Source of the DNA: Rhodospirillaceae bacterium
GTDB taxonomy: Bacteria > Pseudomonadota > Alphaproteobacteria > UBA828
Assembly: GCA_018666805.1 (NCBI GenBank)
Contig: JABIXB010000213.1
Coordinates: 1-38,384, forward strand
Direction: 5' to 3'
DNA: 38,384 nucleotides
Shown: one piece after another, positions 4,960-10,284 of the stretch
Layout: the number at the start of each line of letters is the position of its first letter
Position numbering within the stretch: the stretch's first letter is position 1
Notes under the pieces: model-generated
What the model was told of the DNA's origin: nothing
Databases searched by the model: none
The model's input: the letters and a program-made list of their open reading frames with translations, nothing else
Program-made: the position numbers and the translations under genes

Positions 4960-4988
4960 TTGTAAATAATATTCTTTTATTGTATATT
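4960..4988 (+). promoter_or_regulatory. Candidate sigma70-type promoter upstream of the small ORF at 5061
   Basis: TTGTAA (4960-4965), 17-nt spacer, TATATT (4983-4988) in a locally very AT-rich patch (about 4950-5015). Confidence 0.35.
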
Positions 4989-5060: not shown

Positions 5061-5282
5061 ATGATCAGCGCGGTTAGACTCGCCAATGAGGGCATGAAAA
5101 ATGCCGGCGCACGGGTGGACAAGGCGGTGCAGAAATTCGCCGAAGCCTCAAAAAGCGCGCACGGCCCCGAGGTCAAAGACGTGATCGAGTTCAAAACCGC
5201 CGGGCACGCCTTCGAGGCGAGCGCCAAGGTGTCAAAGATGGCCAACAATATGATGGGCACCCTCTTGGACATCATGACCTAA
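5061..5282 (+). CDS. Small protein resembling flagellar rod/hook protein terminal (D0) helices only
   Basis: 73 aa MISAVRLANEGMKNAGARVDKAVQKFAEASKSAHGPEVKDVIEFKTAGHAFEASAKVSKMANNMMGTLLDIMT; the C-terminal half resembles the rod/hook C-terminal pattern (YEAN-x-KV-x-TADEMLxTLLxI). Confidence 0.6.
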   Translation: MISAVRLANEGMKNAGARVDKAVQKFAEASKSAHGPEVKDVIEFKTAGHAFEASAKVSKMANNMMGTLLDIMT

Positions 5283-5286
5283 GCGA

Positions 5287-5475
5287 ATGGGATACGCGAT
5301 TAATCCAACTTATGACGGCGTCGAAAAAACCCGTGCCCGGCCAATCAAACCCACGCCAAATGTAAAAGACACCGACGCCCGTGCCGCGACCGATGCAAAG
5401 CGGGTCAATTATCCACCTAAGGCGAGCACCAAACCCGCCGGCGCCCCCGGCGAGATAATCGACAAGAGAGCCTAG
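5287..5475 (+). CDS. Small Pro/Lys/Ala-rich hypothetical protein
   Basis: 62-aa ORF immediately downstream (4-nt gap) of and co-directional with the 5061 ORF; low-complexity, probably disordered. Coding status not certain. Confidence 0.4.
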   Translation: MGYAINPTYDGVEKTRARPIKPTPNVKDTDARAATDAKRVNYPPKASTKPAGAPGEIIDKRA

Positions 5476-8508: not shown

Positions 8509-10284
8509 ATGGCTTATGTTGAGCACATAGAGGATACGGGACACCGGTCAGAACAGACTGCAGCCGAGGAAACACAGGATCGCGGCGAGCTGTTGAATAT
8601 GGCCGTGCAGCATCACCAGGCCGGGCGCCTGGACGAGGCGGACGGGCTCTATCGCCTGCTTCTTGACGTCGAGCCGGACCACCCTGACGCACTGCATCTT
8701 TCTGGTCTGATCCGCCTGGCGCGCAACCAGCCGGGCGAGGCGATTGAGCTGATTGAGCGAGCTCTTTCGGTTAACTCTGCCAATGCCGCCTATTATGGCA
8801 ATTTAGGGCGCGCCTATGCGGCGCTCGACGATAGCGAGAAAGCGCTGGAATGCTTCCGCCACGCCATCGAGATTGATGCGCATTCCGCCGAGAGCCTGGC
8901 CAGCATGGGCCAAATTCTGCGCAAGCTGGAGCGTTATGACGAGGCGATAGATAGCCTCGAGAAAGCGCGCCAGATACAGCCCGGCTCAGCCGATATCGAA
9001 AGCACATTGGGCAGCGTCTATCATGCTGCCAACCGACTGGAAGAGGGTGTGGCCTGCTACCAGCGCGCCATTGGGATAGATCCGAATCATGCCCCGGCGC
9101 ATGCCAACCTCGGCTTGGCACAGTTCGATCTTGGCAATTTGCAAGAAGCCATCAACCATGACCGCCGTGCCGTCGAGTTGCAGCCTGATTCCGCCAGCGC
9201 CCACTTGAATTTGGGCTGGGCCCTGTTTGGTTCGGCCGATAATTCGGAAGCGCACAAACATTTTGAAACCGCCATCACGCTCGCGCCGGAGATGAGCGAA
9301 GGCCATTTGAAGCTGGCGCTGTGCTTCCTGGCGGAAGGTGAGATTGAAGACGCTCACAATCATTTCAAGCGCGCCAGCCAGCTTGCCATCAAGCCCAGAT
9401 ACCTCTCGGCGCCGTTCAAGCTGAGCCATGATATCGATCAGATGCGCCACCTCTATGCGCGCGGCGTGGCCGGCGACGATATCCAGAAAATTATCGCTGG
9501 TTATGAATCCGTGCGTGACGCCATGCCGCGCCACACGCCGCACGATCATCTGTTCACCTTGAACGTTGCGCAGCGCGATAAGCTGGCGCCGAGCTACGAC
9601 AATGCCTATTACATTCCGGCTTGCCCAATCAGCGCAAAATCGTCGCTCGGCAAGGGGGTCAACCGCAAGCAAGTGGAAAGCGCCTACTTCGACTCCAACC
9701 CAAATCTCGCCGTGGTCGATAATTTGCTGAGCCAGGACGCCCTCTCGCGCCTGCGCGCGTTCTGCCGCGAGGCGACGATCTGGAAGGATGTTAAAGCGGG
9801 CTATCTCGGCACCTATTTGCTGGATGGCTTCTGCGAGCCGCTGTTCCTGCAAATCGCACATGAGCTGCGCAAAGCGCTGCCGGCGATCCTCAAAGATCAT
9901 CCGCTGATCGAAATGTGGGCCTATAAATGCGATCACCAATTAAGCGGGCTCAACAAGCACGCGGACTGCGCCGCGGTAAACATTAATTTCTGGATTTCAC
10001 CGGACGATGCCAATTGCGAGCCCGATTCCGGCGGCCTTGAAGTGTTCAAGGCCGAGGCGCCAATGACCTGGGACTTCCGCCGCTACAATAATGAGCAGGA
10101 CGCGATCGACAATTATCTCGAGGAACAGGGCGGCGAAAGCATTAAGATTCCGCATCGCTCCAACCGGGCGCTGATTTTCAACTCGAACCTGTTTCATAAG
10201 TCCGACGATTGCCATTTCCGCTCCGGTTACAGCAACCGCCGCACCAACGTCACGATGCTGTTCGGCCATCGCTACAATCGTTAG
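8509..10284 (+). CDS. TPR-repeat protein with C-terminal 2OG-Fe(II) oxygenase-like domain
   Basis: 591 aa; multiple TPR units (AAYYGNLGRAYAALDDSEKALECFRHAIEID, APAHANLGLAQFDLGNLQEAINHDRRAVELQP); C-terminal HAD...LFHKSDDCHFRSGYSNRRTNVTMLFG consistent with an HxD...H...R iron/2OG site. Confidence 0.75.
   Translation: MAYVEHIEDTGHRSEQTAAEETQDRGELLNMAVQHHQAGRLDEADGLYRLLLDVEPDHPDALHLSGLIRLARNQPGEAIELIERALSVNSANAAYYGNLGRAYAALDDSEKALECFRHAIEIDAHSAESLASMGQILRKLERYDEAIDSLEKARQIQPGSADIESTLGSVYHAANRLEEGVACYQRAIGIDPNHAPAHANLGLAQFDLGNLQEAINHDRRAVELQPDSASAHLNLGWALFGSADNSEAHKHFETAITLAPEMSEGHLKLALCFLAEGEIEDAHNHFKRASQLAIKPRYLSAPFKLSHDIDQMRHLYARGVAGDDIQKIIAGYESVRDAMPRHTPHDHLFTLNVAQRDKLAPSYDNAYYIPACPISAKSSLGKGVNRKQVESAYFDSNPNLAVVDNLLSQDALSRLRAFCREATIWKDVKAGYLGTYLLDGFCEPLFLQIAHELRKALPAILKDHPLIEMWAYKCDHQLSGLNKHADCAAVNINFWISPDDANCEPDSGGLEVFKAEAPMTWDFRRYNNEQDAIDNYLEEQGGESIKIPHRSNRALIFNSNLFHKSDDCHFRSGYSNRRTNVTMLFGHRYNR

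What the first reader, a model, noticed from the sequence alone, without database searches (positions are those of the whole stretch)
5061..5282. Mini flagellar rod-like protein: only the N- and C-terminal helices, between ssb and uvrA
The 73-aa product aligns by eye at both ends to axial rod/hook proteins: ANEGMKNAGARVDKAVQKFAEASK against the ALSGMNAASQRLDVVANNIANAST-type N-terminus, and VIEFKTAGHAFEASAKVSKMANNMMGTLLDI against the C-terminal YEANxKVxxTADEMLxTLL pattern, without the D1/D2 middle. No flagellar gene is nearby. It has its own candidate promoter in an AT-rich patch. It could be a minimal axial/cap component, a regulator that caps other D0 helices, or a repurposed coiled coil.
Basis: partly seen in the sequence, partly recalled or inferred. 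Interest (0 to 1): 0.65.

Follow-up and report, generated by a model that had tools for sequence, protein, structure and literature searches.

The report
Tiny relative of flagellar rod proteins
A 73-residue protein encoded between two DNA-repair genes belongs to a widespread, apparently undescribed class of miniature relatives of flagellar rod proteins that keep only the two end helices; it probably works with the flagellum or its export channel, although no experiment yet shows what it does.

Summary
The window has an intact 73-aa ORF (5061-5282, +) between ssb and uvrA. It is under purifying selection against a 75%-identical syntenic ortholog in one congener. On its own it reaches Flg_bbr_C only weakly (E=0.0018, below the curated cut-off) and shows no separate N-terminal match. 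Searching outward changes that: it belongs to a class of 70-140-aa "mini rod" ORFs in about 10% of sampled genomes of its class (about 38 of 387) and in other classes of the phylum. Some members pass the Pfam cut-off for Flg_bbr_C, and one passes both Flg_bb_rod and Flg_bbr_C. The class profile aligns end to end with the rod D0 helices with the middle removed (HHalign 97%, E=1e-10; shuffled controls at most 2.7%). The minis sit almost only in flagellated genomes, yet outside flagellar operons. In 13 of 23 loci from other classes the mini stands beside a SprA-related gene; a Campylobacter SprA-related protein is a candidate flagellar type III secretion substrate. Against a simple rod subunit: most minis, including this one, lack the FxxxPhi FlhB-docking motif that rod subunits carry. 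Best reading: an accessory D0-only axial-type protein working with the flagellar export channel. Homology is well supported; function is inferred.

The parts
5061..5282 (+). 73-aa mini rod-like ORF (P0001), including stop
   Evidence: ortholog and dN/dS
5064..5150 (+). N-terminal helix (residues 2-30), counterpart of the axial D0 N-helix; small non-polar ISAV at residues 2-5
   Evidence: AF2 helix H2-30 (low confidence); class profile versus rod D0
5151..5171 (+). Short loop (residues 31-37) where rod/hook proteins carry the Dc/D1/D2 middle and the FxxxPhi motif
5172..5276 (+). C-terminal helix (residues 38-72), counterpart of the axial D0 C-helix
   Evidence: AF2 helix H38-72; FlgK C-terminus of an Oligoflexia genome 46% over residues 37-71
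5205..5270 (+). Segment matching Pfam Flg_bbr_C (PF06429) positions 24-45, 18.2 bits, below cut-off 23
4960..4988 (+). Candidate sigma70-type promoter TTGTAA-N17-TATATT
   Evidence: TATATT conserved in G003; consensus match only, may be shared with ssb
5287..5475 (+). 62-aa ORF directly downstream; no family match, absent from the G003 locus; may not be part of the system

Best explanation
P0001 is a D0-only member of the flagellar axial (rod/hook/HAP) superfamily: a helical hairpin of the two terminal helices joined by a short loop, with the domains between them lost. It belongs to a broad class of such minis in flagellated Pseudomonadota. Most likely it works with the flagellar export channel or axial structure as an accessory subunit, with the D0-like hairpin packing against, or threading into, the D0 core formed by FliE/FlgB/FlgC/FlgK-type proteins. 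It would be expressed from its own promoter, independently of the flagellar operons. Shown here: a real coding gene, homology, D0-only anatomy, co-occurrence with flagella, dispersed genomic positions. Inferred: export, packing with D0 partners, accessory role. My confidence: homology to axial D0 about 0.9; a role tied to the flagellum or its export system about 0.6; an exported or assembled accessory subunit about 0.35.
For: Class profile versus rod D0 with the middle removed: HHalign probability 97%, E=1e-10, 74 columns end to end; 100 column-shuffled controls at most 2.7%. Other-class minis versus D0 92%, versus P0001+ortholog 97%. Members pass Pfam cut-offs: the L076 ORF passes both Flg_bb_rod (21.8) and Flg_bbr_C (33.1) in 133 aa; several 78-89-aa members pass Flg_bbr_C; other members have sub-threshold partial matches to FlgE/FlgK/FlgG/FlgC models. 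The only relative of P0001 returned from a scan of 84,980 genomes is the C-terminus of a FlgK. FlgI is present in 33 of 38 mini genomes against 226 of 387 overall (Fisher p=1e-4); three of the five exceptions have FlhA and rod proteins, and G000 itself has flgB-flgC-fliE. The other carrier, G003, has fliR-fliQ-fliE-flgC-flgB and flgF-flgG and neighbours (several named by eye). SprA-related neighbour in 13 of 23 loci of other classes; a SprA-related protein, CJM1_0395, is a candidate flagellar-T3SS-secreted protein (PMC5223770). The Pseudomonas-like order bioD-mini-acyl-CoA dehydrogenase fits PA0504-PA0505-PA0506 (numbers from memory); PA0505 was captured as surface-exposed on intact cells together with FliD (PMC3511353). 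Residues 2-5 are ISAV; the early-subunit N-terminal export signal in FlgD is SIAV (PMC8983047).
Against: P0001 alone matches classical rod families only weakly. The FxxxPhi gate-recognition motif is present in the FlgB/C/F/G and FliE proteins examined but absent from P0001, its ortholog and 24 of 34 minis; this may not forbid export, since F49 of FlgC is needed for assembly rather than secretion (PMC9307174). Flagellated congener G002 has no mini, so it is dispensable for flagella. G382 has a mini but no flagellar markers. No sigma54 site stands out above chance. AF2 confidence is low (pLDDT 60, pTM 0.36). The surface-capture study also captured many ribosomal proteins.
Confidence: 0.5

Rival explanations
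1. Cytoplasmic D0 mimic: the mini is not exported but binds the D0 helices of axial subunits, or the chaperone or export-gate sites that recognise them, and so tunes export or prevents premature assembly.
For: Missing FlhB-docking motif in P0001 and most minis; genes lie outside flagellar operons; the anatomy is exactly the part that subunits use to contact each other.
Against: PA0505, its likely Pseudomonas counterpart, was captured at the cell surface (PMC3511353; identity by gene order only). The N-terminal small non-polar signal is kept. No binding data.
Confidence: 0.2
2. Repurposed D0 hairpin: derived from a flagellar gene but now serving a non-flagellar, for example envelope-associated, function.
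For: Dispersed genomic positions; consistent pairing with a SprA-related gene and biotin genes in other classes; one carrier without flagellar markers (G382); flagellated congener without it.
Against: Strong co-occurrence with flagella; the SprA-related family itself has a candidate flagellar-T3SS substrate (PMC5223770).
Confidence: 0.22
3. Unrelated helical protein whose A/K/L-rich helices resemble D0 by composition.
For: P0001 alone is below the Pfam cut-off. The ortholog also hits DUF6781 at E=4e-4, below cut-off. Structure search gives only generic helical hairpins.
Against: Shuffles of the same composition score at most 13 bits against 36-60; shuffled profile columns at most 2.7% against 97%.
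Confidence: 0.05
4. Spurious ORF, not translated.
For: Short; no strong Shine-Dalgarno seen upstream; present in only two of the congeners examined.
Against: Syntenic ortholog of identical length, dN/dS about 0.27, third-position bias, family membership.
Confidence: 0.03

Closest known systems
Flagellar rod proteins FlgB/FlgC (and FlgF/FlgG)
   Same: Homologous N- and C-terminal D0 helices; the class profile aligns with FlgC over both ends (HHalign 92%).
   Different: No Dc/D1 middle; FxxxPhi docking motif absent; not in the flgBC-fliE operon, which this genome has on another contig.
Hook and hook-associated proteins FlgE/FlgK
   Same: C-terminal helix pattern; the only relative of P0001 returned genome-wide is a FlgK C-terminus.
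   Different: 73 aa against 400-600 aa; no hook or junction domains.
FliE
   Same: About 100-aa protein whose helices 2 and 3 form a D0-like unit (PMC8546590): the nearest example of a small axial component in anatomy.
   Different: FliE is described as lacking sequence homology to the axial proteins; it is encoded with flgBC and carries FSNLV, a docking-type motif.
Type III injectisome needle and inner-rod subunits (from general knowledge)
   Same: Small exported helical hairpins of 80-100 aa.
   Different: No sequence relation was tested or found; comparison by size and topology only.
Short proteins carrying Pfam Flg_bbr_C / Flg_bb_rod
   Same: The mini class overlaps these: several members pass one or both cut-offs.
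   Different: Automatic domain hits, not a described family; no paper describing them was found in the held library.

Membership tests
Flagellar axial protein superfamily (rod/hook/HAP) | C-terminal Flg_bbr_C region | tested here: inconclusive
   P0001 alone 18.2 bits, below cut-off 23; other minis pass; class profile aligns
Flagellar axial protein superfamily (rod/hook/HAP) | N-terminal Flg_bb_rod helix | tested here: inconclusive
   No own Pfam match for P0001; the class aligns over both ends; two longer minis pass the cut-off
Flagellar axial protein superfamily (rod/hook/HAP) | Dc/D1 domains between the two ends | tested here: not met
   Seven-residue loop only
Flagellar axial protein superfamily (rod/hook/HAP) | FxxxPhi gate-recognition motif of early export substrates | tested here: not met
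   Absent from P0001, ortholog and 24 of 34 minis
Flagellar axial protein superfamily (rod/hook/HAP) | Exported and assembled in the flagellum | not testable with these tools
   No experimental data for this protein
Mini rod (D0-only) class defined here | 70-140 aa with both D0 ends in one short frame | tested here: met
   HMMs of other minis score P0001 at 60 and 36 bits
Mini rod (D0-only) class defined here | Carrier genome has flagellar genes | tested here: met
   flgB-flgC-fliE on contig C273; FlgI, FlhA and FlgE/F/G/K not found in this fragmented MAG
Mini rod (D0-only) class defined here | SprA-related neighbour (not universal in the class) | tested here: not met
   Found in 13 of 23 loci of other classes, none of the alphaproteobacterial loci read
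DUF6781 (PF20572) | Pfam cut-off 27 bits | tested here: not met
   P0001 14.1 bits, ortholog 20.7 bits

The most novel reading that the evidence does not exclude
Flagellated Pseudomonadota commonly carry an unrecognised, dispersed gene for a D0-only axial protein that is exported through the flagellar type III system and acts as an accessory part of, or plug or cap for, the axial channel. In several lineages it is paired with a SprA-related protein that may be secreted by the same route.
Probability: 0.25. Interest if true: 0.75.

Novelty: new variant of a known kind. Interest (0 to 1): 0.52.

Why it matters
The flagellum is often treated as a fully listed machine. A recurrent D0-only relative, encoded outside the flagellar operons and easily missed because of its size, would be either an unlisted axial or export component or an example of the D0 hairpin being reused. 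It is directly testable because it is small, dispensable in some lineages, and has a likely counterpart in Pseudomonas laboratory strains.

Tried and rejected
Foldseek against PDB with the low-confidence model gave only generic helical hairpins. phmmer against PDB sequences found nothing. A sigma54 promoter scan was at chance level. Rfam found nothing in the intergenic region. The tblastn match in G007 (L004) was dropped because of a stop inside and a non-matching larger frame. The idea that the small gene beside the mini in one genus is a YjfB-type motility protein was dropped: no Pfam match. The 62-aa downstream ORF has no homolog among fetched loci. Comparing only the P0001+ortholog pair with rod profiles was inconclusive (8-16%), which is why the class was assembled. 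Plasmid searches for two other minis found nothing. Whole-genome laying was not available. A paper search by likely locus tags of other Pseudomonas counterparts, recalled from memory, found nothing relevant.

Full report
What is there. The window (names of taxon and genome withheld; gene content reads as Alphaproteobacteria, my inference) carries queA, coaD, gyrA and ssb on the minus strand, then the 73-aa ORF at 5061-5282 on the plus strand, a 62-aa ORF, uvrA, a TPR/oxygenase-like gene, trmFO and a run of housekeeping genes (secDF-yajC, surE, serS, tatABC, scpA, argS, dgt, erpA and others; named by eye from translations). No flagellar gene lies in the window: the only Flg_bbr_C-like stretch in it is the finding itself, and no Flg_bb_rod match lies in it.

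Is it a gene? One of five congeners (G003) has a 73-aa ortholog, 75% identical, at the same ssb/uvrA place. dN=0.167, dS=0.625, codon-position changes 15/7/24. Congeners G002, G004 and G005 have a short ssb-uvrA gap without it, and G001's contig ends there. No other mini was found in the family. So the gene is real, but patchy among close relatives.

Is the rod resemblance real? For P0001 alone it is marginal: Flg_bbr_C E=0.0018 and 18.2 bits, cut-off 23. A scan of 84,980 genomes returned one relative, and it is the C-terminus of a 473-aa FlgK. A profile of P0001, its ortholog and a 103-aa ORF from another family found many further short ORFs of the same plan across the class. The next profile found about 38 compact cases in 387 genomes (my count of matches with both ends in one short frame), and a third found members in other classes. 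The class runs from 133-aa forms that pass both Flg_bb_rod and Flg_bbr_C (L076) and forms with NIAN-type motifs (L065, L080, L131) down to 72-aa forms like this one.

Controls. An HMM of 17 minis without P0001 and its ortholog scores P0001 at 60 bits against at most 13.4 for 2000 shuffles. An HMM from minis of other classes gives 36 bits against 11.6 for 5000 shuffles. The mini profile aligned to FlgG/FlgF/FlgC with the middle removed gives 97% and E=1e-10, against at most 2.7% for 100 column-shuffled versions. Remaining circularity: the minis were found with profiles that included P0001. The independent anchors are that several of them hit Pfam or NCBIfam flagellar models on their own and that many share conserved gene order.

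Link with flagella. FlgI occurs in 226 of 387 genomes and in 33 of about 38 mini genomes (p=1e-4 without phylogenetic correction). Of the five exceptions, G030, G120 and G429 have FlhA and rod-type proteins; G000 has flgB-flgC-fliE; only G382 has none. The p=7e-8 also computed uses that one-sided rescue and should not be quoted. G003 has fliR, fliQ, fliE, flgC, flgB, flgF, flgG and probably flgA, flgH, fliL, so missing FlhA in these MAGs most likely reflects fragmentation.

Gene context. In the alphaproteobacterial loci the minis are scattered beside unrelated genes. In other classes 13 of 23 loci place a SprA-related gene directly after the mini, often in a bioD/bioH - mini - SprA-related - acyl-CoA dehydrogenase order; Pfam was run on two of these SprA proteins, the rest were matched with an HMM built from five of them or by motif. 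A SprA-related protein, CJM1_0395, is reported as a good candidate for secretion through the Campylobacter flagellar type III system (PMC5223770). The same order without SprA fits PA0504-PA0505-PA0506 of P. aeruginosa (numbers from memory, not tested), and PA0505 was captured as surface-exposed (PMC3511353); that study also captured ribosomal proteins, so this is a lead only.

Mechanism. AlphaFold2 gives two helices (2-30, 38-72) joined by a short loop, at low confidence, as might be expected of D0 helices outside their assembly. The FxxxPhi gate-recognition motif (pattern from general knowledge of the field) is present in the FlgB, FlgC, FlgF, FlgG and FliE proteins examined and absent from P0001 and most minis. 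Published work shows the gate-recognition motif docks early subunits on FlhB and that a small non-polar N-terminus is a second signal (PMC8983047); P0001 keeps ISAV at residues 2-5. For FlgC the equivalent phenylalanine matters for assembly rather than secretion (PMC9307174), so the lack of the motif does not settle export. I commit to an accessory D0-only protein acting with the flagellar export channel or axial core, at about 0.5 overall, with the cytoplasmic mimic and the repurposed hairpin as live rivals.

Novelty. The domains are known; the D0-only class with its distribution, dispersed loci and SprA pairing was not found described in the held papers, though that library is incomplete. 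New variant of a known kind.

Noticed in passing
L126, L127, L129, L130, L133, L137, L140, L142, L143, L146, L147, L148, L151: Mini rod ORF directly followed by a SprA-related (PF12118) gene, often with bioD/bioH upstream and an acyl-CoA dehydrogenase downstream; a conserved neighbourhood across several families of other classes.
   Followed up: partly
L189:8659-9444: flgG of congener G002 is interrupted by a single in-frame TAG after 172 codons of the open frame; real decay or a sequence error in the MAG.
   Followed up: partly
window 5287-5475: 62-aa ORF just after the mini has no homolog in any fetched locus and is missing from the G003 locus; lineage-specific insert or spurious.
   Followed up: partly
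L086:1741-2031, L091, L095, L097, L101: In one genus a 92-97-aa gene (MDVAAAGFAASQIAS...) follows the mini and precedes a TPR gene; no Pfam match, conserved within that genus.
   Followed up: partly
L112/L174 (genome G382): Mini-like ORF in a 97% complete genome with no FlhA and no Flg_bbr_C protein; the one clear non-flagellated carrier.
   Followed up: no
window 8509-10284: 591-aa protein of many TPR repeats with a C-terminal part that looks like a 2OG-Fe(II) oxygenase (by eye), next to uvrA.
   Followed up: no
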